Shown here: positions 2,946 through 15,839 of the stretch, one piece after another
Layout of the letters: each line of letters opens with the position of its first letter
Position numbering within the stretch: position 1 is the stretch's first letter
Source: Pseudomonadota bacterium
Lineage (GTDB): Bacteria > Pseudomonadota > Alphaproteobacteria > Acetobacterales > Acetobacteraceae
Direction: 5' to 3'
DNA: 15,839 nt
NCBI GenBank assembly: GCA_021826565.1
Contig: JAKAZJ010000006.1
Span: forward strand, 1-15,839
The notes under the pieces: generated by a model
Databases searched by the model: none
Told to the model about the DNA's origin: nothing
The model's input: only the letters and a program-made list of their open reading frames with translations
Program-made: the position numbers and the translations under genes

Positions 2946-2950
2946 CGCAC

Positions 2951-2993: not shown

Positions 2994-3013
2994 TCGCGAC
3001 GGGAAACTGTCAA
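2986..3013 (-). promoter_or_regulatory. Possible promoter for the 6S candidate/cyclo-ligase transcript
   Basis: On the minus strand a perfect TTGACA (-35) occupies 3008-3013. At normal spacing the -10 region (about CCTGAT) overlaps the right arm of the 9-bp palindrome, so a protein bound to the dyad could block it. The -10 match is poor. Confidence 0.3.
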
Positions 3014-3031
3014 GCCGGGGAAACGCCGCAT

Positions 3032-3059
3032 TTGTGCAGAAATATCATAGTTTTATGCT
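3032..3059 (+). promoter_or_regulatory. Possible promoter of msmABC in an AT-rich patch
   Basis: The 621-base gap before msmA contains a distinct AT-rich stretch (about 3030-3095) in otherwise GC-rich DNA. TTGTGC at 3032-3037 and TATGCT at 3054-3059, 16 bases apart, are a plausible sigma-70 pair. It would give a long leader of about 320 bases, in which I see no riboswitch or other clear element. Confidence 0.28.
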
Positions 3060-3382
3060 ATTAGCCGATAGAACATATTGTCTTTACAGGCAGTGGATCA
3101 GGTAGCACAGTTTCTCGAGGACCGAAGGGTCGTATGCAGGCTGGCGGGCTGGAAGCCGGTGGGGAAAGTCTATGAAAGCGTTCGGTCATGGCCGCGTTCG
3201 ACATGTGAGAGTCGCGCGTGCCATCTGGAGGACCGCCCCTGGCGGCCGATCTTGCACCCGATGATCCCGAAAGCCGAATGTCTGGCGCGGCGTGTCTTCG
3301 GGATCCTGCGCGCAGCCCGTCCCCTCGGCATGTCGGCCTCGCCTGCGCGAACGCCCAGCTTTGCCCCGAGAGGAGAGGTGTG

Positions 3383-4618
3383 ATGACGGCACTTGCGATC
3401 GATCCAACCCGGTATGACGAAGGCCAGGCGATGCCTTCGGTGGACAGCCGGATCTACGGTGACCATGATATCTTCGAGGAGGAGGTCGAGAAAATCTGGA
3501 AGAGGGTCTGGCTCCTCACGGTCCACGAGTCGGAGCTTGCGGAACCACTCGATTTCCGCACGCTGACGGTAGCGCGCGAGCCGGTGATCATCGTGCGCGG
3601 CGCTGACAACAAGATCCGGGCATTCCTCAATGTCTGCCCGCATCGTGGCAATCTGATCGTTCGTCAGCCCTCCGGCAGCCTGAAGGTCGCGGAACCGTCG
3701 GGCAATGCCAACCACATGACCTGCATGTTCCACGCCTGGCAGTTCGACAGCTTCGGCCGCTGCGCCGATATCCCCCGCATGAAGCAGGGGTACCAGGACC
3801 GTCTTCAGAAGGCGGACGTGGGGTTGAAGGAGCTCCCCTGCGAGGTGGCCTATGGCGGCTTCGTCTGGCTCTCGCTCAACCGGGATCCCGGTCCGCTCTC
3901 GGCGTTCATCGGGCCGGCGCTCGATGTCCTGAAGACCGAGCTCGACAGCGAGCCGCTGGATGTTTTCCACTACCACAAGGCGATCATTCCGAGCAATTAT
4001 AAGCTCTGGCACGATACCAACAGCGAATTCTACCATGATTACATGCATTATTTTAACCGCGCGACGGGCATGTTGCACAAGGGCTACTTCGAGCGCCGGT
4101 ATACCGCCTTCCCGAATGGTCACGCTGAGGTCGGCTCGATGGAGGTGAAATACGATGCCTATGAGGGTGCCGCCGAGCGACCGCTTTCCTTCCCGGGAAT
4201 GCCGATCAACGGCTGGAAGTTGGTCGACCTCTTCCCGGGCACGACATACAACCTTCGCGGCTCCTCATTGCGCATCGACACAATGACCCCGATTGGCCCG
4301 GACCTCGTGATGATCGAGTTTCGCGGCCTCGGATTGAAAAGCGATACGCCGGAACAGCGCGCGCAGCGGGTCCGGGACCACAATACCATCTGGGGGCCGT
4401 TCGGCCGCAACCTGCACGAGGACCTTCTGGGGATCACCGGTCAGGGCGTGGCAATGCGGCCGGGCACCGGGCCGCGCCGGGTGTTACACGGGCGGCATGA
4501 GGACAGCACGATCCACGACGAGATCGGGATGCGCCATTATTACGCCGAATGGGCGCAGCGGATGGGCCGTTCCCCGGCCGATCCCATGGCCTCGCCTATC
4601 GCTGCCGCCGCGGAGTAG
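3383..4618 (+). CDS. msmA: Methanesulfonate monooxygenase, hydroxylase large (alpha) subunit
   Basis: This is the Rieske non-heme iron oxygenase subunit that would hydroxylate methanesulfonate, which then breaks down to formaldehyde and sulfite. It has 411 residues. The Rieske centre is C85-P-H87 and C114-M-F-H117, with 26 residues between the pairs instead of the usual 15-17. This long spacer is the feature reported for MsmA of Methylosulfonomonas and is the main reason for the specific call. The catalytic domain carries KLWHDTNSEFYHDYMHYFNR at 207-226, with H218 and H222 as likely iron ligands, and RNLHEDLLGITGQG at 342-355, where D347 is the probable carboxylate ligand. The ATG at 3383 has a strong AGGAGAGG site at 3371-3378; an upstream in-frame extension to 3218 lacks homology. 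It begins an operon with msmB and msmC. Another sulfonate or aromatic acid remains possible as substrate. Confidence 0.83.
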   Translation: MTALAIDPTRYDEGQAMPSVDSRIYGDHDIFEEEVEKIWKRVWLLTVHESELAEPLDFRTLTVAREPVIIVRGADNKIRAFLNVCPHRGNLIVRQPSGSLKVAEPSGNANHMTCMFHAWQFDSFGRCADIPRMKQGYQDRLQKADVGLKELPCEVAYGGFVWLSLNRDPGPLSAFIGPALDVLKTELDSEPLDVFHYHKAIIPSNYKLWHDTNSEFYHDYMHYFNRATGMLHKGYFERRYTAFPNGHAEVGSMEVKYDAYEGAAERPLSFPGMPINGWKLVDLFPGTTYNLRGSSLRIDTMTPIGPDLVMIEFRGLGLKSDTPEQRAQRVRDHNTIWGPFGRNLHEDLLGITGQGVAMRPGTGPRRVLHGRHEDSTIHDEIGMRHYYAEWAQRMGRSPADPMASPIAAAAE

Positions 4619-4690
4619 TGGATACGGCGGACGCGGCCGGGAAAGGCAATATCCCCCCTGGTCGCGTCCCGCAAATTCGGAGGAAATGTC

Positions 4691-5200
4691 ATGACTACTG
4701 TCCAAGGTGCCGAGCACGATCCCGTGCGCGAAGCGGTCCGGGAGACGATCTATCGCGCCTGTCTCCTGCTCGATGACGGGCGGTTCTCGGATTGGCTCAG
4801 CCTGTGCGCGCCTGATTTCTGTTACAAGATCACAGCCTACAGCCCCGAGATCCGCAAGGACATGACCTGGTACGAGCAGGACATCGACGGGTTGAAGAAC
4901 ATGATCGAGATGCTGCCGAGGCACAACACCGACCACGGCCGCCTCATGCGGCACGCGACGGTCTATACCATCGAGATCGACCGCGCCAAAGGCGAGGCCG
5001 TCGCGACCACCGCCTTCTCCTGCTATCGCACTGCGCTGGATGGGATGAACTCGCATCTGGATGCCGGCGAGTCGCAGCTTTTCGTGATCGGGAAGTACTA
5101 CGACAGGCTGCGGCTCGACAATGACGGGCCACGGTTCGTGGAGCGCAGGGTTGTGCTGGAGACGCGCCGGCTGGATAAAGGCTCGCACTATCCGGTCTGA
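4691..5200 (+). CDS. msmB: Methanesulfonate monooxygenase, hydroxylase small (beta) subunit
   Basis: This is the structural beta subunit of the Rieske oxygenase, with the NTF2/SnoaL-like cone fold; it packs against MsmA and has no cofactor. The 169-residue protein has the usual N-terminal helix region (VREAVRETIYRACLLLDDGRFSDWLSLCAPDFCYKI). The typical basic middle follows, HNTDHGRLMRHATVYTIEID, and then the C-terminal strand LFVIGKYYDRLRL...FVERRVVLETRRLDKGSHYPV. Its length fits beta subunits (about 160-180). It lies 72 bases after msmA and has a good GGAGGAA site at 4679-4685. Its place between a Rieske alpha subunit and a Rieske ferredoxin supports the role. Substrate specificity cannot be read from this subunit. 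Confidence 0.82.
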   Translation: MTTVQGAEHDPVREAVRETIYRACLLLDDGRFSDWLSLCAPDFCYKITAYSPEIRKDMTWYEQDIDGLKNMIEMLPRHNTDHGRLMRHATVYTIEIDRAKGEAVATTAFSCYRTALDGMNSHLDAGESQLFVIGKYYDRLRLDNDGPRFVERRVVLETRRLDKGSHYPV

Positions 5201-5241
5201 CAGACCGCACCCGGCCACCGTCGATAACGAGAGGCTCTCCT

Positions 5242-5574
5242 GTGACTTGGCAGAGACTATGTTCCCTGGGCGATCTCGATGAAGGGCGCCTGAAAAAGAT
5301 CGACCACGCCGGCGTCGCGATCATGGCAACCCTGATCGACGGCGCCGCGGTGGCGCTCCCGCCGCGCTGTCCCCATATGTCCGAGCCGCTCGAGGAGTCC
5401 GGCGTCTGCGACCACGGGACGCTCACCTGCACGAAGCACGTCTGGCAATGGGATCTGCGCACCGGTGAACCGCAAGGTCTCGCGGAGAAGCCGCTGAGCC
5501 TCTACCCGACGGAATGCCGGGACGCAGAGGTCTGGATCAACTTCGAGCACGAACTGGCCTACGAATACGATTGA
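5242..5574 (+). CDS. msmC: Methanesulfonate monooxygenase, Rieske ferredoxin
   Basis: This small electron carrier passes electrons from the reductase MsmD to the MsmA Rieske centre. The 110-residue protein has a Rieske [2Fe-2S] site: C43-P-H45 and C63-T-K-H66, with a 17-residue spacer as in ordinary Rieske ferredoxins. It is therefore a second, different Rieske protein in the operon, unlike MsmA with its 26-residue spacer. DLRTGEP after the second pair is typical of ferredoxin components. The start is the GTG at 5242, behind GAGAGG at 5229-5234, 41 bases after msmB; no ATG near it gives a better N-terminus. It is the last plus-strand gene of the operon, and a repeat element begins immediately after its stop. 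Confidence 0.85.
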   Translation: MTWQRLCSLGDLDEGRLKKIDHAGVAIMATLIDGAAVALPPRCPHMSEPLEESGVCDHGTLTCTKHVWQWDLRTGEPQGLAEKPLSLYPTECRDAEVWINFEHELAYEYD

Positions 5575-5575
5575 C

Positions 5576-5874
5576 GCCACTTTTCGGTTCTTCGCTGTTT
5601 GGAGTGGGTAGCGGGCCCGGCCGGCAGCCCGGGGCAAGGTGCCCGACCTGACCGAGCGTGGTGCCGTGCTCGCCGCCGTCAAGAACGCTGCGCGCCGCGC
5701 AAGGGCGCGGTGGCCCGCGAAGGGGCGGGCCATCCTTGACCGCGGCTCCGCTCGGCGCCCTGGAGATGTCAGGTCGGGACGGAGAAACGGCTCCCAGCCG
5801 AACCGAGAAACGCCACAGAAGGGGGTGGCATGGGAGCGCCCTACCCACACCAAACAGCGAGGAGGCCACTTTTC
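5576..5874. repeat. MITE-like repeat element of about 300 bp with inverted ends and flanking direct repeats
   Basis: Inverted ends lie at 5592-5611 and 5841-5860 and match at 19 of 20 bases. Outside them a 10-base direct repeat, GCCACTTTTC, occurs at 5576-5585 and 5865-5874, as a target-site duplication would. The interior is highly palindromic. CCCGACCTGACCGAGCG at 5642-5658 pairs with 5749-5755 plus 5768-5778. Short hairpins lie at 5695-5710 and 5711-5732 (TGGCCCGC/GCGGGCCA). I see no credible protein in it. It fills the gap between the convergent msmC and CNB-domain genes and could act as a transcription end for both. A non-autonomous transposon is the simplest reading; an integrated palindromic repeat of another kind is possible. 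Confidence 0.65.
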
Positions 5875-5942
5875 CGATGGGGCGGGGGACAAATCCCTCG
5901 CCGGGGCTATGCCTCGATGTTCAGCCCTGGCCATGTTCCCGA

Positions 5943-6422
5943 TTATGTTACGCTGCTCAGCAATGTGCTCTGTTCGAGGAAGCTCTGCGTGATCATCCTC
6001 GCCAGGCGCTGCATCACGAGAAATCCCGCGCGCGGGTCCTCCTCCAGCACCTCCAGCAGCTGGCGCCCATCGATCTCCAGCAGCCGGCTCGGTTCAAGCG
6101 CGGCCACCGTCGCGATGCGCCGGGGTTGATCGGCGAGCAACGCCGCCCATCCCAGGATATCGCCCGGGCGGATAACCGAGCCGCCGGCGGCGGGCCGGCC
6201 GTCGCCGCCCAAGGTAAAGCGGAGACGACCGTTACAGATGACATAAACGTTGCGGGCCGGATCGCCGACCGAATAGAGGATATCGCCCTCATCGACCTCC
6301 CGCGCACGCGACAGCGCCGCGATCCGCTCTATGGTCGGTTCAGAGACACCGGCGAGGATCTGCATCCGTCGCAGGACGGTCGGAACATCCCGGGCAGGGA
6401 TGGAGCTTGCATCGGACGGCAT
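5943..6422 (-). CDS. Orphan cyclic-nucleotide-binding-domain protein without DNA-binding domain
   Basis: The 159-residue protein is a single CRP-type sensor domain. Residues about 41-130 form the beta-roll: VDEGDILYSVGDPARNVYVICNGRL, then VIRPGDILGWAALL and RIATVAAL. A C-terminal helix (about 133-152) resembles the CRP dimerisation helix. There is no helix-turn-helix and no membrane segment, so it is not a CRP/FNR transcription factor by itself. In the phosphate-binding cassette the Glu that normally contacts the cyclic nucleotide ribose is replaced (GWAALL instead of GE-ALL), while an Arg is kept at ...PRRIATV. It may therefore bind another ligand, or none. It lies 26 bases downstream of msmD on the same strand and is probably co-transcribed with it. 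A regulatory or redox-sensing role for the oxygenase is inference. Confidence 0.8.
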   Translation of the reverse strand: MPSDASSIPARDVPTVLRRMQILAGVSEPTIERIAALSRAREVDEGDILYSVGDPARNVYVICNGRLRFTLGGDGRPAAGGSVIRPGDILGWAALLADQPRRIATVAALEPSRLLEIDGRQLLEVLEEDPRAGFLVMQRLARMITQSFLEQSTLLSSVT

Positions 6423-6448
6423 GGGTCATCTCCCGGAGAGACGTTGAT

Positions 6449-7531
6449 CTAGCTGAACTTATCGTAACGGATATCGCGTGCCGGCAGCCGCGCCTGGGTG
6501 ATCAGCATGCGGATCGAGACGTCCACCAGGATCGGCGGCCCGGCCAGGTATGCGACCCGCCCGGCGAACCGATCCGCCAGGTCGCGGGCGGCCACTTCGT
6601 GCGGGAATCCAGTCTCGAACGACAGCGCGGGATAGCGCTCCCGAAGTGACGGATCGATTTCGTCGTGGGAGAAAACGATGGTGATCCGGAGCGTTCCGGG
6701 GAACGACCCGGCGAACCGGTTCAGCCGGTCCAGGTAGAAGACATCCGCGCGGGTCCGCAGGCCGAAAAACACCGCCGCGTCGAACTGCTCGAAATGACAC
6801 GAGGTCGCGCCTACCGCGAGGATCGACATGATCGAGGCGATCCCGGAGCCGCCCGCAATGGCGACAATGGTCCTCTGCTCCTGCGGCGTGAAAGTGGCCT
6901 TTCCCAATGGGCCGAACCACTCGAGTTGCTCACCCCGCAGATCGTCGGAAAGTAGCCACTCCGTGAAGCCCCCGCCGGGCTTGCGCTTGATGACGAACTC
7001 CACTTCCTCAGCCGTGCCGGCTTGGTTCACCATCGAGTACGCACGATAGCCGTTCACATGTGGGGTGGCGAGCACCGCGAATTGCCCTGCCTCGAACTCC
7101 AGGGCCGGCTCCATCCGCAGGCGCAGAGCCACAATGTCGTGGGTCAGGCGCGCGACATCGGTGATGACCGCCCGCCCGAAGGAGGGACGGACGGACGGGC
7201 TCAGGGTGATATCCGCGCGGCCGGGAATTTCGAAGCTCGACTCGGTCAGGGCACGCGTCTGACACAGCAGCACTTCTTCGCGATCAGGGTTGAGATATCG
7301 GGCCCCCGGCGCTTCAGGCCAATCATTGAGAAGCACTCCGGAACGGCGGCGCGCCTTGCAGGTTCCGCAGGTCCCGGTGGCGCATTCGTACGGCAGCAGA
7401 ACACCGGCGTGTAGAGCCTCATACAGCAAAGAGCGTTGCGGGGTCACCGCAAAGGTGCGGGCACCTGTCTTTGAATGTACCTCAATCAGCACGCTGGTTT
7501 CGGCACCAGGACGGGAGGCATGATGAGTCAT
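6449..7531 (-). CDS. msmD: Methanesulfonate monooxygenase reductase (plant-type [2Fe-2S], FAD, NAD)
   Basis: This reductase takes electrons from NADH through FAD and a plant-type [2Fe-2S] cluster to the MsmC ferredoxin. The 360-residue product has an N-terminal ferredoxin domain with C50, C55, C58 and C90 (CATGTCGTC...LLC). A flavin domain with RAYSMVN at 163-169 follows, and then a nucleotide-binding domain with GGSGIASIMS at 227-236. Domain order and length match MsmD. The likely start is the ATG at 7531, although no good ribosome-binding site precedes it; the open frame upstream to 8224 overlaps the MFS gene and is not credible. Unlike the described msmABCD operon, this gene is on the opposite strand, separated from msmC by the CNB-domain gene and a repeat element. 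Another electron partner is possible, but no other reductase is present here. Confidence 0.82.
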   Translation of the reverse strand: MTHHASRPGAETSVLIEVHSKTGARTFAVTPQRSLLYEALHAGVLLPYECATGTCGTCKARRRSGVLLNDWPEAPGARYLNPDREEVLLCQTRALTESSFEIPGRADITLSPSVRPSFGRAVITDVARLTHDIVALRLRMEPALEFEAGQFAVLATPHVNGYRAYSMVNQAGTAEEVEFVIKRKPGGGFTEWLLSDDLRGEQLEWFGPLGKATFTPQEQRTIVAIAGGSGIASIMSILAVGATSCHFEQFDAAVFFGLRTRADVFYLDRLNRFAGSFPGTLRITIVFSHDEIDPSLRERYPALSFETGFPHEVAARDLADRFAGRVAYLAGPPILVDVSIRMLITQARLPARDIRYDKFS

Positions 7532-7656
7532 GGTTGGTGGCCCGCAGGTATCGATTAAAGCGAGTAGCAGGATATCATCACGTCTGTCGGCAGACCAGAT
7601 CCCATACCCAGACAGATCGGCGGCCTGCAGGAGCGGCGATGCGGCATGGAATTTGG

Positions 7657-7688
7657 CCGGCGGGGTCCCGCGCACGGGACCCCGCCGG
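7657..7688 (-). terminator. Perfect 14-bp hairpin after the MFS transporter gene
   Basis: CCGGCGGGGTCCCG at 7657-7670 pairs exactly with 7675-7688 across a 4-base loop. It begins 7 bases past the transporter stop on the minus strand. The sequence after it is only mildly AT-rich (CCAAATT), so it may attenuate rather than fully stop transcription towards msmD. Confidence 0.75.
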
Positions 7689-7695
7689 ATGTCTG

Positions 7696-9012
7696 TCAGA
7701 GTTGCACCTCTTCGAGCTCGCGCCGAGCGGTCTCCGGCCCCAGGAGGTAACCGATGATCGGCAGGATCCAAAGTGCCGCCGTGACCATGAACGGAATCGT
7801 CGGGCCGTAGACCGAGATTCCCCACCCAACCAGGAAGGGAGCCGCGATCGATGCCAGCCGCCCGCCTCCCACCATGATACCGAAGCCGGTGCCGCGCAGT
7901 GAGGTGCGGAAGAACTCGCTGAGGTAGGTATCGCCGACGCCCCAGAGCCAACCCAGCAATCCGACCATCAGGGCCCCGAAGATCAGGAATAAGGTCAGGG
8001 AATTTGTCAGCGATGCTTCCAGTGTGCAGCCGATCATGAGCACCGAGCCGAGGATCCCGGCTGGCCTGCGGCCGATGAGATCGGAGAGCCCGGTTCCGAC
8101 ATAGGACAGGAAAAACTGAACCACGTAGAACATCATCGCGTAAAAGATCGCGTCGGTCGGCACGACATGGAATTTTACCACCATGAAGGTGGTCAGGAAG
8201 ACCGTGATTCCCCAGTAGCCGCATGCGTTGGCCACGTAGATCAGCCAGCCGATCACGATGCGGCGGAATGCGCCCGGGACGGTCCAGATATTGACGCGCG
8301 GATGGATGGCACCTTCTTCCCGGATCATCGCCTCAATCTCGGCGCGGGCATGGCGATACCGCGGCGACTCCTGAATCATGCGCCGAAGGACGAACACCAT
8401 CACAGCTGGGACGATGGCGAAGACAAACGCCCACTGCCAGCCAAACCGCGGCACGATGAACAGCGCGGCGATCGCCGCCACGATGTAGCCCAGGGAGTAG
8501 AGCGAGAACATGATGCCGCCGGTTCCGAGCGCCCTCACCTTCGACGGCCACATCTCGGCGGTGTAGGGCGCGCCGACGGCAAGTTCTCCCGCGCCGCCGA
8601 CGCCGGTCAGGAAGCGAAGTCCGGTAAAGAGGAACAGATTGGTCGTCAGGCCGCCGAGCGCGGTCGTGATACCATACATGATGATCGACCAGCCCAGCGC
8701 GTCCCGCCGCCCGACACGATCGGCGAGGATGCCGAATCCGAAGGTGCCGATGGTATATCCAACGAGGAAGATCGAGCCGATCAGCCCGATTCCCTTCAGC
8801 GTAATATCGAGGTCTTTCGCGATCAGCGGCCCCAACAGACCGAAGATGTTGACCGCATAGGCATCGAATCCGTAGCCGAGGCCGGCGGCGATTGCGACGA
8901 GCAACGCCTCTCGGAAGGGGATAACGTGCATCACGCTGTGGCCCGTCGCTCCACGCGGAATCCCTTCCACGACCGAAGCGGCAGACTCGGCTGTTCTCAG
9001 CCCCTGGCTCAT
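7696..9012 (-). CDS. MFS transporter, candidate methanesulfonate/organic acid importer
   Basis: This is a 438-residue major facilitator protein with about 12 hydrophobic helices, placing it in the inner membrane. The first helix carries GLGYGFDAYAVNIFG (44-58), with the acidic residue typical of proton-coupled organic-acid symporters. The loop 2-3 signature LADRVGRRDALG is at 96-107, and its repeat, LSDLIGRRPAG, lies in the second half. RRMIQESPRY marks the end of the first half. The overall type is closest to the aromatic-acid/metabolite:H+ symporter group. The ATG at 9012 follows a very good GGGAGGAAAAA site. Its position directly upstream of msmD suggests it imports the oxygenase substrate, replacing the ABC transporter MsmEFGH of classical loci. 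That is inference; a carboxylate or sulfite substrate is possible. Confidence 0.85.
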   Translation of the reverse strand: MSQGLRTAESAASVVEGIPRGATGHSVMHVIPFREALLVAIAAGLGYGFDAYAVNIFGLLGPLIAKDLDITLKGIGLIGSIFLVGYTIGTFGFGILADRVGRRDALGWSIIMYGITTALGGLTTNLFLFTGLRFLTGVGGAGELAVGAPYTAEMWPSKVRALGTGGIMFSLYSLGYIVAAIAALFIVPRFGWQWAFVFAIVPAVMVFVLRRMIQESPRYRHARAEIEAMIREEGAIHPRVNIWTVPGAFRRIVIGWLIYVANACGYWGITVFLTTFMVVKFHVVPTDAIFYAMMFYVVQFFLSYVGTGLSDLIGRRPAGILGSVLMIGCTLEASLTNSLTLFLIFGALMVGLLGWLWGVGDTYLSEFFRTSLRGTGFGIMVGGGRLASIAAPFLVGWGISVYGPTIPFMVTAALWILPIIGYLLGPETARRELEEVQL

Positions 9013-9249
9013 TTTTTCCTCCCAACGAATATCAGATCAGGCAGGGCGGAACCTGTGCAGGCCCGCTGTTGTTCTGGGACGCCCTTGTTGCCTTGGAACG
9101 GAACCGAGACTCTCGGTCGTAGACAGAGAATTCCGGCCCACAGACCACGCGTAATCGCATCAAGGGTCGATCGTGCCTGTTCGTCCAATCCTATTTCTAA
9201 ATGGATATATCGAAAAAACCTATAGTGCAGCAGGCGCCGGTCCCCTGTC

Positions 9250-9278
9250 TTGCAATTCGATCTGAATGGCTGAATTAT
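9250..9278 (+). promoter_or_regulatory. Possible promoter of the formate dehydrogenase operon
   Basis: TTGCAA at 9250-9255 and AATTAT at 9273-9278 are 17 bases apart, each matching four of six consensus bases. It lies in the AT-richer half of the 299-base divergent gap between the MFS and fdsG genes. The rest of the gap shows only a short CCGAG-ACT-CTCGG dyad and an AT-rich patch around 9187-9222. No fdsR-type regulator gene is nearby. Confidence 0.35.
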
Positions 9279-9311
9279 CCCCCTGGTTGAACTGCGACGG
9301 GGAGGAGATGC

Positions 9312-9782
9312 ATGAACGCGGATGCGCCATGGAACCCGGAACGGGCGGCGGCGATCATCGCGGCGCATCGCGCGACCGAGGGCGCCGTCATGCCCATCCT
9401 GCACGCGCTGCAGCACGCATTCGGCCACGTGCCACGGGCGGCGATCCCGTTGGTTGCCGAGGCGCTGAACCTGACACGCGCCGAAGTGTACGGCATCGCC
9501 AGTTTCTATCACGAGTTCCGCGATACCCCGCCCGGGCGGCACATACTTCGGCTATGCCGCGCCGAGGCGTGCCAGGCGATGGGGGCGGAGCGCTTGCACG
9601 CGGCGGCGCGGCATCGCCTGGGGATCGGCTGGCACGAAACCACCGCCGACGGCGCGGTGACCCTGGAACCCGTGTTCTGCCTGGGGCTGTGCGCGGTCGC
9701 GCCTTCGGGGATGCTGGATGGCGCCCCGCTGGGGCGGCTTGATCCGCCGGCGCTCGATGCCGTCCTGGAGGCCGCGCGATGA
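9312..9782 (+). CDS. fdsG: NAD-dependent formate dehydrogenase, gamma subunit (NuoE-like)
   Basis: FdsG is the small electron-transfer subunit that, with FdsB, forms the NADH-generating module of soluble formate dehydrogenase. It is homologous to NuoE of complex I. The 156-residue protein has the helical N-terminal domain (MPILHALQHAFGHVP, ALNLTRAEVYGIASFYHEFR). The thioredoxin-like [2Fe-2S] fold follows, with C82, C87, C123 and C127 as ligands (CRAEAC and CLGLC). The ATG at 9312 follows GGGGAGGAG. It opens the fds operon, and its stop overlaps the fdsB start (ATGA at 9779). Confidence 0.93.
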   Translation: MNADAPWNPERAAAIIAAHRATEGAVMPILHALQHAFGHVPRAAIPLVAEALNLTRAEVYGIASFYHEFRDTPPGRHILRLCRAEACQAMGAERLHAAARHRLGIGWHETTADGAVTLEPVFCLGLCAVAPSGMLDGAPLGRLDPPALDAVLEAAR

Positions 9783-11308
9783 GCCACGTCTTCGTTCCGC
9801 GCGATGCCGGCGCGTTGGCGCTGGGGGCGGACGCGGTCGCCGCCGCGCTGACCGCTTCCCGGATTGAGGTGGTGCGCACCGGATCGCGCGGGATGTTCTG
9901 GCTGGAACCGATGATCGAGGTGGAGACGCAATCGGGGCGGATCGCCTACGGGCCGGTGCGGCGGGAAGACGTAGCGGGGCTGCTGGCCTCGGGGTTGATG
10001 GCGGGCGGGGCGCATCCATTGCGCCTTGGACCGACGGAGGAGATCCCGTTTCTCGCCGGGCAGACGCGCTTCACCTTCGCGCGCTGCGGGGTGGTGGATC
10101 CCGGCTCGCTCGAAGACTACCGCGCCCATGGCGGACTGAAGGGGCTGGCGCGGGCGATCAAGATCGGGCCGGCGGCGACGGTTGCGGAGGTGACGGCCTC
10201 CGGCCTGCGCGGGCGCGGCGGGGCAGGTTTCCCGACGGGTGTGAAGTGGAAGACCGTCGCGGATGCCACCGGCGAACGCAAATTCGTCGTCGCCAATGCC
10301 GACGAGGGCGATTCCGGCACCTTCGCCGATCGGATGCTGATGGAAGGCGATCCGTTTTCGCTGATCGAGGGCATGGCGATCGCCGCGATCGCGGTCGGGG
10401 CCTCGAAGGGGTATGTCTATACGCGGTCGGAATATCCGCACGCGATCGCCGCGTTCGATCGGGCGCTGGCGGCGGCGCGCGCCGCCGGGATGCTGGGCGC
10501 GGACACGCTGGGTTCGGGGATCAGCTTCGATATCGAGCAGCGGGTCGGCGCGGGCGCCTATATCTGCGGCGAAGAAACCTCGCTGCTCGACAGTCTGGAG
10601 GGCAAGCGCGGCCAGGTGCGCGCCAAGCCGCCGCTGCCGGCGATCAAGGGGCTGTTCGGCCAGCCCACGGTGGTCAACAACATCATCTCTCTGTCTTCGG
10701 TTCCGTTCATCCTGGCCGAAGGGGCGCGTGCGTACCACGATATCGGCTACGGGCGGTCGCGCGGCACGATGCCGATCCAACTGGCCGGAAATATCCGCCA
10801 TGGCGGATTGTTCGAGGCGGGGTTCGGGCTGACCCTGGGTGAGATCGTGAACGATATCGGCGCAGGCACGGCGACGGGCCGGCCGGTGCGCGCGGTGCAG
10901 GTGGGCGGGCCGCTCGGCGCCTATTTCCCGCCCAGCCTGTTCGACACGCCGTTCGACTACGAGGCGTTCGCCGCGCGGGACGGGCTGATCGGCCATGGCG
11001 GGGTGGTGGTGTTCGACGACACCGTCGATCTGGCCCGCCAGGCGCGCTTCGCGATGGAGTTTTGCGCCGCGGAATCCTGCGGCAAATGCACCCCCTGCCG
11101 GATCGGCTCGGTGCGCGGGATGGAAGTGATCGACCGCATCCTGGCCGGGCACGATGTCGATGCTAATTTGGAACTGGTCCGCGATCTCTGCGAGACGATG
11201 AAATTCGGCTCGCTCTGCGCGCTGGGCGGCTTCATCCCCTATCCGGTGATGAGCGCGCTCGCGCATTTCCCCGAGGATTTCCGCCGCCTCGCGCAGGCGG
11301 CGGAATAA
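9779..11308 (+). CDS. fdsB: NAD-dependent formate dehydrogenase, beta subunit (NuoF-like)
   Basis: FdsB binds FMN and NAD+ and reduces NAD+ with electrons coming from the molybdenum subunit. Its 509 residues hold a degenerate thioredoxin-like N-terminal domain (about 1-90, without a cluster), as is usual in FdsB. The FMN/NAD-binding part follows: GLRGRGGAGFPTGVKW at 142-157, NADEGDSGTF at 173-182, and GAGAYICGEETSLLDSLEG at 257-275. The C-terminal [4Fe-4S] site is ESCGKCTPCRIGS (C434, C437, C440) plus C480 in GSLCALGG. All expected motifs are intact. It overlaps fdsG by four bases and ends ten bases before fdsA; an AAGGAGG site for fdsA spans its stop codon. Confidence 0.95.
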   Translation: MSHVFVPRDAGALALGADAVAAALTASRIEVVRTGSRGMFWLEPMIEVETQSGRIAYGPVRREDVAGLLASGLMAGGAHPLRLGPTEEIPFLAGQTRFTFARCGVVDPGSLEDYRAHGGLKGLARAIKIGPAATVAEVTASGLRGRGGAGFPTGVKWKTVADATGERKFVVANADEGDSGTFADRMLMEGDPFSLIEGMAIAAIAVGASKGYVYTRSEYPHAIAAFDRALAAARAAGMLGADTLGSGISFDIEQRVGAGAYICGEETSLLDSLEGKRGQVRAKPPLPAIKGLFGQPTVVNNIISLSSVPFILAEGARAYHDIGYGRSRGTMPIQLAGNIRHGGLFEAGFGLTLGEIVNDIGAGTATGRPVRAVQVGGPLGAYFPPSLFDTPFDYEAFAARDGLIGHGGVVVFDDTVDLARQARFAMEFCAAESCGKCTPCRIGSVRGMEVIDRILAGHDVDANLELVRDLCETMKFGSLCALGGFIPYPVMSALAHFPEDFRRLAQAAE

Positions 11309-11318
11309 GGAGGCCGGG

Positions 11319-14159
11319 ATGAGCCTGCACCCCGAACCCGATCATGGCACGCCACCGAGCGGCGCGACCGCAACCGTCACCCTGACGATCGACGGGCAGG
11401 ACGTGACGGTCCTGGAAGGCACCTCCGTGATGCGCGCCGCCGTCGAGGCGGGGATCACCATCCCGAAGCTGTGTGCCACCGACAGCCTGGCCGCGTTCGG
11501 CTCCTGCCGGCTATGCCTGGTGGAAATCGAGGGGCGCGGCGGCACGCCGGCCTCCTGCACCACGCCGGTTGCGGCCGGGATGAAGGTTGCAACCGGGACG
11601 GACCGGTTGCGCCGGCTGCGGCGCGGGGTGATGGAGCTCTATCTGTCCGATCATCCGTCGGACGGGCTGACTTCGCCGGTCGCGGGGGCGGCCGAGATGC
11701 ATACGATGGCCGGGATCGTCGGCGTGCGGCGCGTGCGCTACGGGACCGAGGGGGCCAATCATCTGGCCGCGCCGGTCGATGTGTCCAACCCCTATTTCCA
11801 GTTCGATCCGGCGCGCTGCATCGTCTGTTCGCGCTGCGTGCGAGCCTGCGAGGAAACGCAGGGGACCTTCGCGCTGACCGTCGAGGGGCGCGGGTTTGCG
11901 TCAAAAATCGTCGCCGGAATGGACGAGCCGTTCCTCACGTCCGAATGCGTCTCCTGCGGCGCCTGCGTGCAGGCCTGCCCGACCGGATCGCTGATCGAGA
12001 AATCGGTGGTCGCGCTGGGTCAGCCGGAACGCGCGGTGGAAACCACCTGCGCCTATTGCGGCGTCGGCTGCACCTTCCGCGCCGAGATGCAGGGCGAGAC
12101 CGTCGTGCGCATGGTGCCGGCGAAATCCGGCAAGGCCAATCACGGCCATTCCTGCGTCAAGGGCCGCTTCGCCTGGGGCTACGCGCAGCACCAGGACCGC
12201 ATCCTGAAACCAATGTTGCGCGCGAAGATCACCGATCCGTGGCGGGAAGTGGGCTGGGACGAGGCGATCGCGCATGTCGCGACCGAATTCCGCCGGCTGC
12301 AAGCCGCGGCGGGCAAGGATTCGATCGGGGTCATCACATCGTCGCGCTGCACGAACGAGGAGACCTATCTGGTCCAGAAGCTCGCGCGCGCCGGGTTCGG
12401 CAACAACAACACCGATACCTGCGCGCGGGTCTGCCACTCGCCGACGGGGTACGGGCTGGCGACCACGTTCGGGACCTCGGCCGGGACCAATGATTTCGAT
12501 TCGGTCGAGCACGCGGATGTGGTGCTGGTGATGGGTGCCAATCCGACCGACGGGCATCCGGTCTTCGCCTCCCACCTCAAGCGCCGGCTACGGGCCGGGG
12601 CGAAGCTGATCGTGGTCGATCCGCGGCGGATCGATCTTGTACACACACCGCACGTGGAAGCGACGTACCACCTGCCGCTGCGGCCGGGCACCAATGTCGC
12701 CATGCTGGATGCGCTGGCGCATGTGATCGTGACCGAAAATCTGATCGATCAGGACTATGTGCGCGCGCGCTGCGACGCGGACGCCTTCGCCGATTGGGCT
12801 GCCTTCGTGGCCGAGCCGCGCAACAGCCCCGAGACGGTGGAGGCAATCACCGGCGTGCCGGCCGCACTGGTGCGCCAGGCCGCCCGGCTCTACGCGACGG
12901 CTGGGCGCGGGGCCATCTATTACGGCCTCGGCGTGACCGAACACAGCCAGGGCAGCACCGCGGTGATGGGGCTGGCCAACCTCGCGATGGCGACCGGCAA
13001 TGTCGGCACGGCGGGCACCGGGGTCAATCCGCTGCGCGGGCAGAACAACGTGCAGGGCTCGTGCGACATGGGCAGCTTCCCGCACGAACTGCCTGGCTAC
13101 CGCCATATCTCCAGCCCGGCCGTGCGCGCGATCTACGAGCGCGAATGGGGCGTGCGGCTCGACCCTGAACCCGGGCTGCGCATTCCCAACATGTTCGACG
13201 CCGCGCTGGACGGAAGTTTCCGGGGCATCTACATCCAGGGCGAGGACATCGTGCAGTCCGATCCGGACACGCACCATGTCACCTCCGCGCTGGCGGCGAT
13301 GGAGCTCGTGGTGGTGCAGGACCTGTTCCTGAACGAGACCGCCACCTTCGCCCATGTGTTCCTGCCAGGATGCAGCTTCCTGGAGAAGGACGGCACCTTC
13401 ACCAATGCCGAGCGCCGGATCGGCCGAGTCCGCAAGGCCATGGCCCCGCGCAACGGCTACGCGGACTGGGAGATCACGCAGTTGATCGCCAACGCCATGG
13501 GCGGCGGCTGGGCCTACACCCACCCCTCGCAGATCATGGACGAAATCGCGCGCACCACGCCCACCTTCGCCGGCGTGAGCTTCGCCAAGCTCGACGCGCT
13601 GGGTTCGGTGCAATGGCCGTGCAACGATGCGATGCCCGACGGCACGCCGACGATGCACGAGACGGGCTTCGTGCGCGGCAAGGGCCTGTTTGTCGTCACC
13701 GAATACGTCCCCACCGACGAGCGCATCGGGCCGCGCTTCCCGCTGCTGCTGACCACGGGGCGCATCCTCAGTCAGTACAACGTGGGCGCACAAACGCGGC
13801 GGACCGAGAATACGCTGTGGCACACCGAGGATGTGCTGGAAATCCATCCGCACGATGCCGAGGAACGCGGGGTGCGCAACGGCGACCTGGTCCGCCTCGC
13901 CTCCCGCGCAGGCGCCACGGCGCTGCACGCGCGCATCACCGACCGGGTGGCGCCGGGGGTGGTGTACACCACGTTCCACCATCCGGAGACGCAGGCGAAC
14001 GTGGTCACTACGGAATATTCCGACTGGGCGACGAACTGCCCGGAATACAAGGTGACCGCCGTCCAGGTCTCGCCCGCCAACGGTCCGACGGAATGGCAGG
14101 AGACCTACCGCGCCACCGCCGAGCGCGCCCGTCGGATCGAGGCGGTGCCGGCAAAATGA
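11319..14159 (+). CDS. fdsA: NAD-dependent formate dehydrogenase, catalytic molybdenum alpha subunit
   Basis: FdsA oxidises formate to CO2 at a bis-molybdopterin Mo centre and passes electrons down an iron-sulfur chain to FdsB. In 946 residues it has a plant-type [2Fe-2S] domain (C52, C63, C66, C80). Two ferredoxin-type [4Fe-4S] sites follow (C167/C170/C173/C177 and C210/C213/C216/C220). The Mo-domain [4Fe-4S] site is CAYCGVGC plus C279. The catalytic Cys372-His373 pair sits in DTCARVCHSPTGYG. The conserved stretch usually providing a His/Cys3 [4Fe-4S] site reads DHPSDGLTSPVAGAAEM: H112 is kept, but G116, S119 and A125 replace the cysteines, so this cluster should be absent. The C-terminal guanine-dinucleotide-binding domain is complete (LLTTGRILSQYN, then TTFHHPETQANVVT). 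Cys rather than Sec and the fds gene order mark the oxygen-tolerant soluble type. Confidence 0.95.
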   Translation: MSLHPEPDHGTPPSGATATVTLTIDGQDVTVLEGTSVMRAAVEAGITIPKLCATDSLAAFGSCRLCLVEIEGRGGTPASCTTPVAAGMKVATGTDRLRRLRRGVMELYLSDHPSDGLTSPVAGAAEMHTMAGIVGVRRVRYGTEGANHLAAPVDVSNPYFQFDPARCIVCSRCVRACEETQGTFALTVEGRGFASKIVAGMDEPFLTSECVSCGACVQACPTGSLIEKSVVALGQPERAVETTCAYCGVGCTFRAEMQGETVVRMVPAKSGKANHGHSCVKGRFAWGYAQHQDRILKPMLRAKITDPWREVGWDEAIAHVATEFRRLQAAAGKDSIGVITSSRCTNEETYLVQKLARAGFGNNNTDTCARVCHSPTGYGLATTFGTSAGTNDFDSVEHADVVLVMGANPTDGHPVFASHLKRRLRAGAKLIVVDPRRIDLVHTPHVEATYHLPLRPGTNVAMLDALAHVIVTENLIDQDYVRARCDADAFADWAAFVAEPRNSPETVEAITGVPAALVRQAARLYATAGRGAIYYGLGVTEHSQGSTAVMGLANLAMATGNVGTAGTGVNPLRGQNNVQGSCDMGSFPHELPGYRHISSPAVRAIYEREWGVRLDPEPGLRIPNMFDAALDGSFRGIYIQGEDIVQSDPDTHHVTSALAAMELVVVQDLFLNETATFAHVFLPGCSFLEKDGTFTNAERRIGRVRKAMAPRNGYADWEITQLIANAMGGGWAYTHPSQIMDEIARTTPTFAGVSFAKLDALGSVQWPCNDAMPDGTPTMHETGFVRGKGLFVVTEYVPTDERIGPRFPLLLTTGRILSQYNVGAQTRRTENTLWHTEDVLEIHPHDAEERGVRNGDLVRLASRAGATALHARITDRVAPGVVYTTFHHPETQANVVTTEYSDWATNCPEYKVTAVQVSPANGPTEWQETYRATAERARRIEAVPAK

Positions 14160-14995
14160 CCGGCGCGCGCATCCCAGACCCGGCAAGCAACCTGCCCCGG
14201 GTGCTCTGGCGCGGCGGCGGGATCGCGCACGGGCGCCGGCAGGTGGCCGAGGAAACGCCCGTCGCGTTCTCGTATAACCGCGCGACCCTGGCGGTGATGC
14301 TGGCGACGCCCGCCGATCTGGACGATTTCGCGCTGGGCTTCAGCCTGACCGAGGGGATCGTCACGCATCCCGACCAGATCGAGGAGATCGCGATCGTCGC
14401 GGTCCCGAACGGGATCGAGCTGCGCCTGTGGTTGTCGCCCAATCGCGCGGCGGCGGCGGAGACGCGGCGGCGCCACCTCGCCGGGCCAGGCGGATGCGGC
14501 CTGTGCGGGATCGACAGCCTGGAGGCCGCCAACCGCGCGCCACGCCACGTCACCGCCGATCCCTGCGTCACCACCACCGACATCGCCGAAGCGGTGGCGA
14601 GCCTCGCCCCCGCCCAGACGCTGAACGCCGCCACCCGCGCGACCCATGCCGCGGGGTTCTGGACCCGCGCCGAGGGGCTGGTGATCGTGCGGGAGGATGT
14701 CGGGCGACACAACGCGCTCGATAAGCTCGCCGGCGCGCTGGCCCGCGCGGGGCGCGCGGTCTCGGACGGCGTGGTGCTGCTCTCCAGCCGGCTTTCGGTG
14801 GAGCTCGTGCAGAAGGCCGCTATGATCGGTGCGCCTGTTTTGGCCGCGGTCTCGGCACCCACCGCGCTCGCCGTGCGCACTGCCGAGCAAGCCGGGATCA
14901 CTCTGGTCGGCATCGCGCGATCCGATGGGTTCGAGATATTCACGTATGCGCACCGGATCGTGCCCGCCGAGGATGCAACCCGCCATGTCGCCTGA
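14156..14995 (+). CDS. fdhD: Formate dehydrogenase accessory sulfurtransferase FdhD/FdsC
   Basis: FdhD (FdsC in fds operons) delivers sulfur to the Mo cofactor so that formate dehydrogenase becomes active, and binds the bis-MGD cofactor. The 279-residue protein has the family motifs: EETPVAFSYNRATLAVMLATPADLDDFALGF near the N-terminus, and the sulfur-carrying CGLC pair in GGCGLCGIDSLE at about 112-123. TRATHAAGFWTR and VREDVGRHNALDKLAGAL (about 178-195) follow, then SSRLSVELVQKAAMIGAPVL and GFEIFTYAHRI. The start is the ATG overlapping the fdsA stop (ATGA, 14156-14159), which places it in the same operon with likely translational coupling. The frame is open far upstream inside fdsA, but that part is only a shadow. 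Confidence 0.93.
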   Translation: MTGARIPDPASNLPRVLWRGGGIAHGRRQVAEETPVAFSYNRATLAVMLATPADLDDFALGFSLTEGIVTHPDQIEEIAIVAVPNGIELRLWLSPNRAAAAETRRRHLAGPGGCGLCGIDSLEAANRAPRHVTADPCVTTTDIAEAVASLAPAQTLNAATRATHAAGFWTRAEGLVIVREDVGRHNALDKLAGALARAGRAVSDGVVLLSSRLSVELVQKAAMIGAPVLAAVSAPTALAVRTAEQAGITLVGIARSDGFEIFTYAHRIVPAEDATRHVA

Positions 14996-15212
14996 CCGTC
15001 TCGCCTATATGGCCAACCAGATCGGCAAGTTCTTCGCCCACCGCCCGCATGGTGTCGCCGTGGCCGCGACCGAGGAACATCTGCGCAAGTTCTGGGACCC
15101 GCGGATGCGCCGGCAGATCGTCGAGGGGCTTGAGCGCGGCGAGGCCACGCTCGACCCGCTGGTCCGCGAGGCGGTGGAGCGGCTGCGCGCGCCTGCCGCC
15201 GTGCCCGCTTAG
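14985..15212 (+). CDS. fdsD: Formate dehydrogenase delta subunit
   Basis: FdsD is a small protein required for a stable, active FdsGBA complex. The 75-residue product shows the family's signature: DRLAYMANQIGKFFA at the N-terminus, HLRKFWDPRMRRQIVEGL in the middle, and LDPLVREAVERLR at the C-terminus. The ATG at 14985 overlaps the fdhD end by 11 bases, so the operon order is G-B-A-C-D as in classical fds clusters. No cofactor motif is expected and none is seen. Confidence 0.92.
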   Translation: MSPDRLAYMANQIGKFFAHRPHGVAVAATEEHLRKFWDPRMRRQIVEGLERGEATLDPLVREAVERLRAPAAVPA

Positions 15213-15277
15213 ATCGAGTTCCGACCCCATCCACCACAGCGTTCCAGAACATCCTGACGACCATCGACGGAGGCATT

Positions 15278-15839
15278 ATGCGCGGCGCGACTTCGAGGCG
15301 AACGAGCGGGTTTAGCCGCCCAGTGGAGCGGATCGACCCATCGCCGCCGGTAGGCGATTCGGTCAAGCCAACCACCTGCTACATGTGCGCCTGCCGTTGC
15401 GGCATCCGCGTCCACCTCCAGGACGGCCGCATTCGCTACATCGAGGGCAATCCCGACCACCCGGTGAACAGCGGCGTGATCTGCGCCAAGGGCTCCGCCG
15501 GCATCATGCAGCACTATTCCCCCGCGCGCCTCACGAAGCCCCTGCTGCGGGTGGGCGAGCGCGGAGCCGGCGACTTCAAGGAGATCGAGTGGGAGGAGGC
15601 GCTGAGCCTCGCCACCGAATGGCTCGGCCGGATCCGCGCCACCGAGCCGCGTAAGCTCGCCTTCTTCACCGGGCGCGACCAGAGCCAATCCTTCACCGGC
15701 TGGTGGGCGAAACAGTTCGGCACGCCCAATTTCGCCGCGCACGGCGGGTTCTGCTCGGTCAACATGGCCGCCGCCGGCCTCTATTCCATCGCCGGCAGCT
15801 TCTGGGAGTTCGGCGAGCCGGACTGGGAGCGGACCAAAT
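15278..15839 (+). CDS. soeA: Cytoplasmic molybdopterin oxidoreductase, SoeA-like sulfite dehydrogenase catalytic subunit (5' part)
   Basis: The first 187 residues of a DMSO-reductase-family catalytic subunit are visible; the gene runs off the right edge. The [4Fe-4S] site is C34-Y-M-C37-A-C-R-C41 with C69 in VICAKGSAG. AHGGFCSVNMAAAG at 154-167 offers C159 as the likely Mo ligand. The stretches GIMQHYSPARLTKPLL and FFTGRDQSQSFTGWWAKQFGTPNF match, from memory, SoeA, the membrane-anchored but cytoplasm-facing enzyme that oxidises sulfite to sulfate with SoeB and SoeC. There is no Tat signal: an RR pair near residue 7 lacks a following hydrophobic stretch, which fits a cytoplasmic SoeA. A GGAGG site lies at 15269-15273, 65 bases after fdsD. 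Polysulfide or thiosulfate reductase-like enzymes are the alternative. Sulfite from methanesulfonate cleavage would be a natural substrate. Confidence 0.72.
   Translation, partial: MRGATSRRTSGFSRPVERIDPSPPVGDSVKPTTCYMCACRCGIRVHLQDGRIRYIEGNPDHPVNSGVICAKGSAGIMQHYSPARLTKPLLRVGERGAGDFKEIEWEEALSLATEWLGRIRATEPRKLAFFTGRDQSQSFTGWWAKQFGTPNFAAHGGFCSVNMAAAGLYSIAGSFWEFGEPDWERTK

What the first reader, a model, noticed from the sequence alone, without database searches (positions are those of the whole stretch)
3383..15839. A compact island that may mineralise methanesulfonate: Msm oxygenase, formate dehydrogenase and SoeA-like sulfite dehydrogenase side by side
MsmA with the diagnostic 26-residue Rieske spacer, MsmB, MsmC and MsmD give a complete methanesulfonate monooxygenase, whose products are formaldehyde and sulfite. 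The next operon oxidises formate with NAD+. The gene after it looks like the catalytic subunit of a cytoplasmic sulfite dehydrogenase. Both product branches thus have an oxidising enzyme in one stretch, with an MFS transporter for possible uptake. I know classical msm loci as msmABCD plus an ABC transporter; this arrangement differs. The joint function is inferred from adjacency.
Basis: partly seen in the sequence, partly recalled or inferred. Interest (0 to 1): 0.8.

Follow-up and report, generated by a model that had tools for sequence, protein, structure and literature searches.

The report
Gene island for burning methanesulfonate
The stretch carries genes that look able to break down methanesulfonate, a common natural sulfur compound, all the way to carbon dioxide and sulfate, together with an unexplained relative of a vitamin-making enzyme that may handle the formaldehyde released.

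Summary
The window encodes MsmA (26-residue Rieske spacer), MsmB and MsmC on the + strand; MsmD and an MFS transporter on the - strand, with a cNMP-binding protein between; then FdsGBA-FdhD-FdsD and the first 187 codons of a SoeA-type gene.

The reading as a methanesulfonate (MSA) mineralisation island is mostly supported. One relative repeats PanB-like/5-FCL/MsmABC/cNMP/MsmD/MFS/Fds with FolD and formate-THF ligase added. SoeA is on the msm contig in 5 of 12 msm genomes. In 20 of 20 msm-free relatives looked at, SoeB and SoeC accompany SoeA, none with Fds nearby. Against it: MsmA lies outside the clade holding Filomicrobium and Hyphomicrobium, SoeA is common without msm, and the window ends inside soeA.

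The new point lies left of the finding: the "PanB" at 1130-2083 is a distinct paralogue. Of 666 sampled genomes 7 carry it, all 7 with msmA. It keeps PanB's catalytic residues and often sits with folate C1 genes, so it is a candidate formaldehyde/tetrahydrofolate enzyme; its function is unproven.

The parts
1130..2083 (+). PanB-like hydroxymethyltransferase paralogue (317 aa) associated with msm
   Evidence: PF02548 266 bits, but below both NCBIfam PanB cut-offs; 7 of 666 sampled genomes carry it, all msmA+; own clade 100/100
2171..2760 (-). 5-formyltetrahydrofolate cyclo-ligase (start approximate)
   Evidence: TIGR02727 133 bits, cut-off 84.9; 74% identical in the same place in L008
3383..4618 (+). 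MsmA, Rieske oxygenase alpha subunit with X26 spacer
4691..5200 (+). MsmB, oxygenase beta subunit
   Evidence: PF13577, PF00866; cluster present in 79 of 85 sequences (window plus 84 loci)
5242..5574 (+). MsmC, Rieske-type ferredoxin
   Evidence: PF00355; Rieske motif
5943..6422 (-). stand-alone cNMP-binding-domain protein (159 aa; no other Pfam domain), putative regulator
   Evidence: PF00027; same position in L005, L006 and L008
6449..7531 (-). MsmD, 2Fe-2S/FAD/NAD reductase (360 aa)
7696..9012 (-). MFS transporter, putative methanesulfonate permease
   Evidence: PF07690; 66-81% identical to MFS genes in 6 other msm loci
9312..9782 (+). FdsG, NAD-formate dehydrogenase gamma
   Evidence: NF004638 over cut-off
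9779..11308 (+). FdsB, NAD-formate dehydrogenase beta (NuoF-like)
   Evidence: TIGR01959 392.7 bits, below its 558.65 cut-off; position between FdsG and FdsA
11319..14159 (+). FdsA, formate dehydrogenase catalytic subunit
   Evidence: TIGR01591 917.9 bits, over cut-off
14156..14995 (+). FdhD, sulfurtransferase for formate dehydrogenase
   Evidence: TIGR00129 191 bits, over cut-off
14985..15212 (+). FdsD (75 aa)
   Evidence: position; 55% match in L121; no NCBIfam hit
15278..15839 (+). SoeA-type molybdopterin oxidoreductase, first 187 aa, runs off the window
   Evidence: PF04879, PF00384; 72-79% to SoeA genes of 8 msm genomes, with SoeB/SoeC seen downstream in L105, L107 and L109; best NCBIfam model for the fragment is PhsA, far below cut-off

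Best explanation
The block 1130-15839 is a methanesulfonate-mineralisation island, most likely of an alphaproteobacterium. MSA enters through the MFS permease (inferred). MsmABC with the reductase MsmD oxidises it with O2 and NADH to formaldehyde and sulfite (inferred from family). Formaldehyde is taken up on tetrahydrofolate: the msm-associated PanB paralogue is proposed to act here, and 5-FCL returns 5-formyl-THF to the pool. The C1 unit is oxidised through FolD and formate-THF ligase, which sit beside msm in the closest relative. Formate goes to CO2 through FdsGBA(D), and its NADH can repay the NADH used by MsmD. Sulfite is oxidised in the cytoplasm by SoeABC, passing electrons to quinone. 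Shown here: gene identities, recurrence of the block, and association of the PanB paralogue (strong) and of SoeA (moderate) with msm. Inferred: substrate, fluxes, and the role of the PanB paralogue and of the MFS.
For: X26 spacer and four Msm components. Same block with FolD-Fhs-FdsGBA in L008/L121. Filomicrobium insigne has Fhs, SoeABC, TauE, GcvT, PanB-like and SorA-type + cytochrome c contiguous with msm. SoeA on the msm contig in 5 of 12 genomes: G005, G006 (SoeA cut by the contig end), G009, G011, G012 (cut likewise). SoeB and SoeC beside SoeA in 20 of 20 msm-free relatives fetched. Highest 12-residue mean hydropathy in the first 60 residues of SoeA is 0.97, so no signal segment is seen, fitting a cytoplasmic enzyme. 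PanB paralogue only in msmA+ genomes: 7 of 11 msmA+, 0 of 655 others. MFS of this type in 6 of 80 loci, none with MsmE. Independent analogue on the M. nodulans plasmid. soeCBA, pta and tauR have neighbouring locus numbers (SPO3557-3562) in Ruegeria pomeroyi, so Soe next to a sulfonate pathway has a precedent (PMC4334477, table passage).
Against: MsmA lies outside the 57-row clade that holds Filomicrobium, Hyphomicrobium, Methylobacterium and SAR116, and I know of no tested member of its own clade. Variovorax WS11 carried msmABCD with the X26 motif and did not grow on MSA (PMC7143210 passage). SoeA occurs in 83 of 290 msm-free genomes of the order. In L008's genome SoeA is on another contig. 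Fds beside msm was seen in 1 of 80 loci with the window's own Fds queries; clustering adds one distant FdsA-family gene in L028. The MFS is not a rule of the window's MsmA clade: L007 has MsmE, and L006 has ABC genes and no MFS on its 10-kb contig. L052 has the MFS and also ABC genes, though no MsmE. No own genome is held, so FolD and Fhs could not be checked in this organism.
Confidence: 0.72

Rival explanations
1. The oxygenase of this clade acts on a different C1-releasing sulfonate (or a broader range of short sulfonates), not chiefly on methanesulfonate. The flanking C1 and sulfite genes fit any substrate that gives formaldehyde and sulfite.
For: The MsmA clade is separate from the clade with Filomicrobium and Hyphomicrobium and groups (support 86) with a set that includes the myxobacterial sequences. 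Relatives at 39-53% identity sit beside acetaldehyde dehydrogenase and sulfite/sulfate exporters, suggesting C2 sulfonates.
Against: The PanB paralogue and the same MFS type occur in loci of both MsmA clades, so the two clades share accessory genes.
Confidence: 0.17
2. The fds and soe genes only happen to lie next to msm: msm is one unit, fds a general formate dehydrogenase, and soe a general sulfite dehydrogenase.
For: SoeA is common without msm (83 of 290). FdsA genes at 71-74% identity lie away from msm in G005, G006, G009 and G011 (another contig or hundreds of kb apart), and G007 has one that is not in its fetched msm locus.
Against: 0 of 20 msm-free SoeA loci have Fds nearby. L008/L121 repeats msm-MFS-(FolD-Fhs)-Fds. 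SoeA on the msm contig in 5 of 12 genomes. SoeA in 6 of 7 msmA+ genomes of the order against 83 of 290 others (p 0.003).
Confidence: 0.15
3. The island serves sulfur scavenging and formaldehyde/sulfite detoxification rather than growth on MSA as carbon and energy source.
For: Oxygenases of alkanesulfonates often serve sulfur supply (general knowledge). No carbon-assimilation pathway is visible in the window.
Against: A dedicated quinone-linked sulfite dehydrogenase would waste the sulfur; sulfur-scavenging loci would be expected to assimilate sulfite (inference).
Confidence: 0.1

Closest known systems
msmABCD/msmEFGH loci of Methylosulfonomonas methylovora M2 and Ca. Filomicrobium marinum (PMC4433239, passages; PMC4424283, text part 1 of 2)
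   Same: MsmA with X26 spacer, MsmB, MsmC, MsmD. The Filomicrobium fragment also carries a 3-methyl-2-oxobutanoate hydroxymethyltransferase, GcvT, a sulfite exporter and SoxCD-type sulfite dehydrogenase.
   Different: Here msmD is inverted behind a cNMP-domain gene, an MFS stands where others have msmEFGH, and formate dehydrogenase and a SoeA-type gene are directly attached; MsmA is in another clade than Filomicrobium insigne.
Methylobacterium nodulans plasmid pMNOD01 locus (L001)
   Same: Fds-type formate dehydrogenase, MFS, msmABCD, TauE and a sulfite-oxidase-like enzyme in one stretch.
   Different: Formate dehydrogenase and MFS only 37-40% identical; SorA-like enzyme with cytochrome c instead of SoeABC; no PanB paralogue found in the 25-kb locus.
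SoeABC sulfite:quinone oxidoreductase (PMC8076601, passages; Ruegeria pomeroyi SPO3557-3559 in PMC4334477, passage)
   Same: Molybdopterin subunit without a hydrophobic signal segment; relatives have a 4Fe-4S SoeB and a DmsC-type SoeC beside it.
   Different: Only 187 aa are visible; not compared with the Allochromatium vinosum or Aquifex aeolicus sequences.
Canonical PanB (ketopantoate hydroxymethyltransferase)
   Same: Fold family PF02548; metal, Lys, His and Glu active-site positions kept (roles recalled).
   Different: 29-35% identical to canonical copies in msm genomes; separate clade 100/100; changes beside the active-site motifs (Gly57Ser, Leu60Gly, Gly131Asn, window numbering).
DmmD/TMAO-demethylase GcvT domain (PMC5520151, passages)
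   Same: H4F-binding partner of a formaldehyde-releasing oxygenase; GcvT-like genes lie in 12 of 80 msm loci.
   Different: The window shows no GcvT-like gene; it has the PanB paralogue.

Membership tests
Methanesulfonate monooxygenase (MSAMO) | CXH-X26-CXXH Rieske motif in MsmA | tested here: met
   26 residues; criterion from PMC4433239
Methanesulfonate monooxygenase (MSAMO) | Four components MsmA, MsmB, MsmC, MsmD encoded together | tested here: met
   All four present, but msmD is on the opposite strand
Methanesulfonate monooxygenase (MSAMO) | MsmA groups with MsmA of cultured MSA degraders | tested here: inconclusive
   Groups in a separate X26 clade. The sequences of M2, TR3 and Ca. F. 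marinum were not in the tree; Filomicrobium insigne and Hyphomicrobium MAGs stood in for them
Methanesulfonate monooxygenase (MSAMO) | msmEFGH ABC importer adjacent | tested here: not met
   No ABC importer gene recognised in the window; MFS instead. The island may continue beyond the right end of the window
Methanesulfonate monooxygenase (MSAMO) | NADH- and O2-dependent turnover of methanesulfonate | not testable with these tools
   needs enzyme assay
SoeABC sulfite dehydrogenase | SoeA-type catalytic subunit without export signal | tested here: met
   Fragment only. 72-79% to SoeA genes; no hydrophobic segment in the first 60 residues. Of the 120 listed homologues of G004's SoeA (79% to the window fragment) JGI names some SoeA and others 'anaerobic selenocysteine-containing dehydrogenase', and NCBI calls two formate dehydrogenase
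SoeABC sulfite dehydrogenase | soeB and soeC downstream | not testable with these tools
   window ends; seen in 20 of 20 msm-free relatives fetched and with msm in L105 and L109
NAD-dependent formate dehydrogenase FdsGBAD | FdsG, FdsB, FdsA with FdhD and FdsD in order | tested here: met
   FdsB and FdsD named by position and homology, not by a model over cut-off
PanB ketopantoate hydroxymethyltransferase (TIGR00222, NF001452) | score over the curated equivalog/subfamily cut-off | tested here: not met
   203.3 against 207.55 and 242.6 against 272 bits
PanB ketopantoate hydroxymethyltransferase (TIGR00222, NF001452) | conserved catalytic residues | tested here: met
   alignment to 1m3u and 1oy0; shared invariant columns D58, K127, H151, E196; residue roles recalled
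PanB ketopantoate hydroxymethyltransferase (TIGR00222, NF001452) | groups with canonical PanB | tested here: not met
   42 msm-type rows and 10 canonical rows split 100/100; 'canonical' means the 29-35% copies of msm genomes, not a characterised enzyme

The most novel reading that the evidence does not exclude
The msm-linked PanB paralogue is a formaldehyde-capturing enzyme of the tetrahydrofolate pathway: it condenses free formaldehyde with an alpha-keto acid and hands the C1 unit to tetrahydrofolate (or uses the hydroxymethyl-keto acid for assimilation). It would be the folate counterpart of the formaldehyde-activating enzyme Fae. PMC7073904 finds the spontaneous reaction too slow in vivo and names PanB as a possible promiscuous catalyst; deleting panB and ltaE in E. 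coli did not change its strain's growth phenotype (passages), so E. coli's own PanB does not do it measurably. The association with msm, the kept catalytic residues, the altered positions beside them and the neighbourhood of Fhs, GcvT and 5-FCL in several loci do not exclude this for the paralogue. The Fae data neither support nor exclude it: Fae is present in 10 of 39 genomes with the paralogue and 8 of 15 without (p 0.10).
Probability: 0.22. Interest if true: 0.85.

Novelty: new variant of a known kind. Interest (0 to 1): 0.6.

Why it matters
Methanesulfonate is an important compound of the global sulfur cycle (PMC4433239, abstract), and its bacterial mineralisation is known mainly for its first step. 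The window and its relatives suggest how both products are disposed of, by interchangeable modules: ABC or MFS uptake; SoeABC or SorA-type sulfite oxidation; folate-linked C1 oxidation with formate dehydrogenase. They also give a clean genomic marker, the PanB paralogue, whose function can be tested directly and which bears on the open question of how formaldehyde enters the tetrahydrofolate pathway. The SoeA fragment next to msmD in a SAR116 MAG suggests that 'dmsABC' genes reported beside msmA in SAR116 (PMC8547437, passages) may be sulfite dehydrogenase genes (inference).

Tried and rejected
Own genome: not held, so the contig could not be extended. Known-substrate alternatives for MsmA by curated models: benzoate, anthranilate, phenylpropionate and glycine-betaine oxygenase models all score far below cut-off, so these were dropped. 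Fae as strict alternative to the PanB paralogue: 10 of 39 against 8 of 15, Fisher p 0.10; the independent-pairs test on an MsmA tree also shows nothing; not claimed. SoeA as an msm-specific gene: rejected, 89 of 297 genomes of the order have it. Fds-Soe as a routine block: not seen, 0 of 20 loci; these 20 are of the 83 msm-free genomes with SoeA, picked by hand from the better-scoring hits, most with long contigs, and one (L140) has only 2.7 kb upstream of SoeA. A first PanB tree failed because my motif filter kept only one canonical copy; repeated with tblastn-defined copies. In that repeat one canonical copy (L138, 180 aligned residues) was dropped for length. The MsmA tree is a quick search with some long branches (L003, L002, L063_b) and a midpoint root; only the separation of the window clade from the 57-row clade is relied on. 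Counts in 80 loci are lower bounds because many contigs end close to msm, and rest on identity limits that I set. One of the five SoeA loci there (L067) belongs to the X17 group. The two genome samples used for the PanB control contain their centres G009 and G033, which were known to carry msm, and used different msmA limits (1e-100 and 1e-60). Paper searches (open-licence library only): methanesulfonate monooxygenase with soeA gave two papers, seen as listings; methanesulfonate with formate and sulfite dehydrogenase gave the Filomicrobium announcement; the PanB-type name with formaldehyde and methylotrophy gave three papers, of which I read passages of two. Nothing that I saw describes a msm-restricted PanB paralogue or SoeABC beside msm; papers seen only as listings might.
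Full report
1. What is there. Reading the window on both strands gives, from left: an IS66 transposase end and a cut pabB start (2-955, -), a PanB-like gene (1130-2083, +), 5-formyl-THF cyclo-ligase (about 2171-2760, -), msmA, msmB and msmC (3383-5574, +), a 159-aa cNMP-binding-domain gene (5943-6422, -), msmD (6449-7531, -), an MFS gene (7696-9012, -), fdsG, fdsB, fdsA, fdhD and fdsD (9312-15212, +, overlapping or nearly so), and 65 bases later the start of a soeA-type gene that runs off the window after 187 codons. MsmA has the X26 Rieske spacer.

2. Is the oxygenase an MsmA? 1255 proteins match at E <= 1e-30; the 120 listed all have the X26 spacer, and JGI names many of them methanesulfonate monooxygenase. 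In the family of 86 sequences 62 have a 26-residue spacer, 23 have 17 and one, from phage HMO-2011, has no motif. In the tree of 105 rows the window falls in a 13-row clade (SH-aLRT 99) that groups (86) with an 8-row X26 set including the myxobacterial sequences, while Filomicrobium insigne, Hyphomicrobium MAGs, Methylobacterium and SAR116 lie in another clade of 57 rows (100). So it is an MsmA-type enzyme by motif and components, but its own clade has no tested member known to me, and the sequences of the cultured degraders themselves were not in the tree. X26 alone is not proof of growth: Variovorax WS11 has it and did not grow on MSA (PMC7143210, passage).

3. The neighbours recur. L008 (a different MAG, MsmA 82%) has LysR, TauE, PanB-like (89%), 5-FCL, MsmABC, cNMP gene, MsmD, MFS, FolD, Fhs, FdsG, FdsB and FdsA in that order. 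L005 has FolD, PanB-like, TauE, LysR, then MFS, MsmABC, cNMP gene and MsmD. In 80 loci, with identity limits set in the script, I counted PanB-like 29, TauE 22, SorA 14, GcvT 12, FolD 11, Fhs 7, MFS of the window's type 6, SoeA 5, FdsB/FdsG 1 (L008), MsmE 49; many contigs end near msm, so these are minima. None of the 6 loci with this MFS has MsmE (p 0.002), though L052 has other ABC genes; in the window's own MsmA clade L007 has MsmE and L006 has ABC genes and no MFS on a 10-kb contig. The MFS is 66-81% identical in the 6 loci, four of which belong to the 57-row MsmA clade.

4. Sulfite branch. SoeA orthologues (72-79% over the fragment) were found in 8 of 12 msm genomes. In 5 of the 12 (G005, G006, G009, G011, G012) SoeA is on the msm contig; distances run from 33 bases after msmD in the SAR116 MAG to about 19 kb between soeA and msmA in Filomicrobium insigne; in G006 and G012 the contig ends inside SoeA. 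In Filomicrobium and Hansschlegelia, SoeA is followed by a 4Fe-4S SoeB and a DmsC-type SoeC. In the wider set of 50 msm genomes (of 80) 18 have SoeA at E <= 1e-40. Control: in 297 genomes of the Filomicrobium order 89 have SoeA, 6 of 7 with msmA and 83 of 290 without (p 0.003). From the 83 I fetched 20 loci, chosen from the better-scoring hits (19 of 13 kb, one of 9.5 kb): 20 of 20 have SoeB and SoeC, 0 of 20 have Fds within the stretch. So SoeA is common, its partners are constant in that sample, and its junction with Fds is not routine. The names in the homologue list are mixed: some SoeA, some 'anaerobic selenocysteine-containing dehydrogenase'.

5. The PanB-like gene. It scores below both NCBIfam PanB cut-offs. 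In 5 of 12 msm genomes it is present at 69-89% identity, while canonical copies are 29-35%; G002, G008 and G009 hold both kinds. 42 msm-type rows and 10 canonical rows split with full support. At E <= 1e-90 it is present in 37 of 50 msm genomes. It goes with the X26 type: 28 of 59 X26 loci and 1 of 21 X17 loci. Control: of 297 genomes in the Filomicrobium order, msmA is in 7 and the paralogue in 4, all among the 7. Of 369 genomes in the class of G033 (a Granulosicoccaceae MAG), msmA-type genes are in 4 (one, G451, only 41% identical) and the paralogue in 3, all among the 4. Together 7 of 11 against 0 of 655 (p 3e-14). The centres G009 and G033 were chosen as msm-positive and are part of these counts; the msmA limits differed (1e-100 and 1e-60). 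Linkage: 94-6391 bases from msmA in the 29 loci, under 600 bases in 18 of them. In G399 the paralogue lies 15-20 kb from two msmA copies, among Fhs, GcvT-like, TauE, an MTHFR-like protein and formate dehydrogenase subunits. In G025, G069 and G093 its match ends within 200 bases of an Fhs match, in G069 only a 42-position piece. Filomicrobium's PanB-type gene beside msm was already listed by PMC4433239 (passage) as a C1-moiety transfer gene; its status as a separate, msm-restricted paralogue was not in the passages that I read.

6. Mechanism. MSA + O2 + NADH gives formaldehyde and sulfite (established for MSAMO). Formaldehyde must reach THF; PMC7073904 (passages) measured the spontaneous step as too slow for growth and named PanB as a possible promiscuous catalyst, but deleting panB and ltaE in its E. 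coli strain left the growth phenotype the same. PMC5520151 (passages) assigns this task to the GcvT-domain protein DmmD in dimethylamine degradation. Msm loci have GcvT-like genes in 12 of 80 and the PanB paralogue in 29 of 80; 9 of the 12 GcvT loci also have the paralogue, so the two may act in sequence rather than as substitutes. This weakens the simple reading that the paralogue alone does the capture. FolD, Fhs and Fds then give formate, CO2 and NADH. Fae, the H4MPT-route enzyme, is in 18 of 54 msm genomes, in 10 of 39 with the paralogue and 8 of 15 without: a trend, not significant. Fhs is over cut-off in 47 of 54.

7. Verdict. A real and probably functional MSA-mineralisation island of a new layout; each catalytic part belongs to a known kind.

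Noticed in passing
window 5943-6422 (-): Stand-alone cNMP-binding domain of 159 aa without a DNA-binding domain hit, between MsmC and MsmD; same place in L005, L006 and L008.
   Followed up: partly
window 2-955 (-): IS66 transposase end directly beside a cut N-terminal pabB fragment (weak model hit), probably an insertion at the island's left border.
   Followed up: partly
21 loci: L037, L038, L056-L058, L060, L062, L063, L067, L069, L073-L081, L083, L084: MsmA relatives with a 17-residue spacer, mostly Betaproteobacteria including Thiobacillus thioparus, lie with MsmB, MsmD, often MsmE and in some SorA + cytochrome c; the spacer may not be a strict marker of sulfonate use.
   Followed up: partly
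L002 7948-17341; L003 5444-11614: MsmA-type genes on plasmids of Paraburkholderia graminis and Hydrogenophaga sp. PBL-H3 next to acylating acetaldehyde dehydrogenase, dmpG and a sulfite- or sulfate-exporter-type gene: perhaps oxygenases of C2 sulfonates.
   Followed up: no
L113 3-1595: SAR116 MED-G04: soeA-type start 33 bases after msmD; genes called dmsABC beside SAR116 msmA in PMC8547437 may be soeABC.
   Followed up: partly
L001, L020, L022, L023, L030, L036, L040, L054: An amidohydrolase-family gene and an unnamed family without Pfam hit (f17, median 275 aa) recur beside msm in Methylobacterium-like and Methylopila-like genomes.
   Followed up: no
L004 1510-2592: Phage HMO-2011 MsmA-like protein lacks the Rieske motif; 46-51% identical to the window's MsmA.
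   Followed up: no
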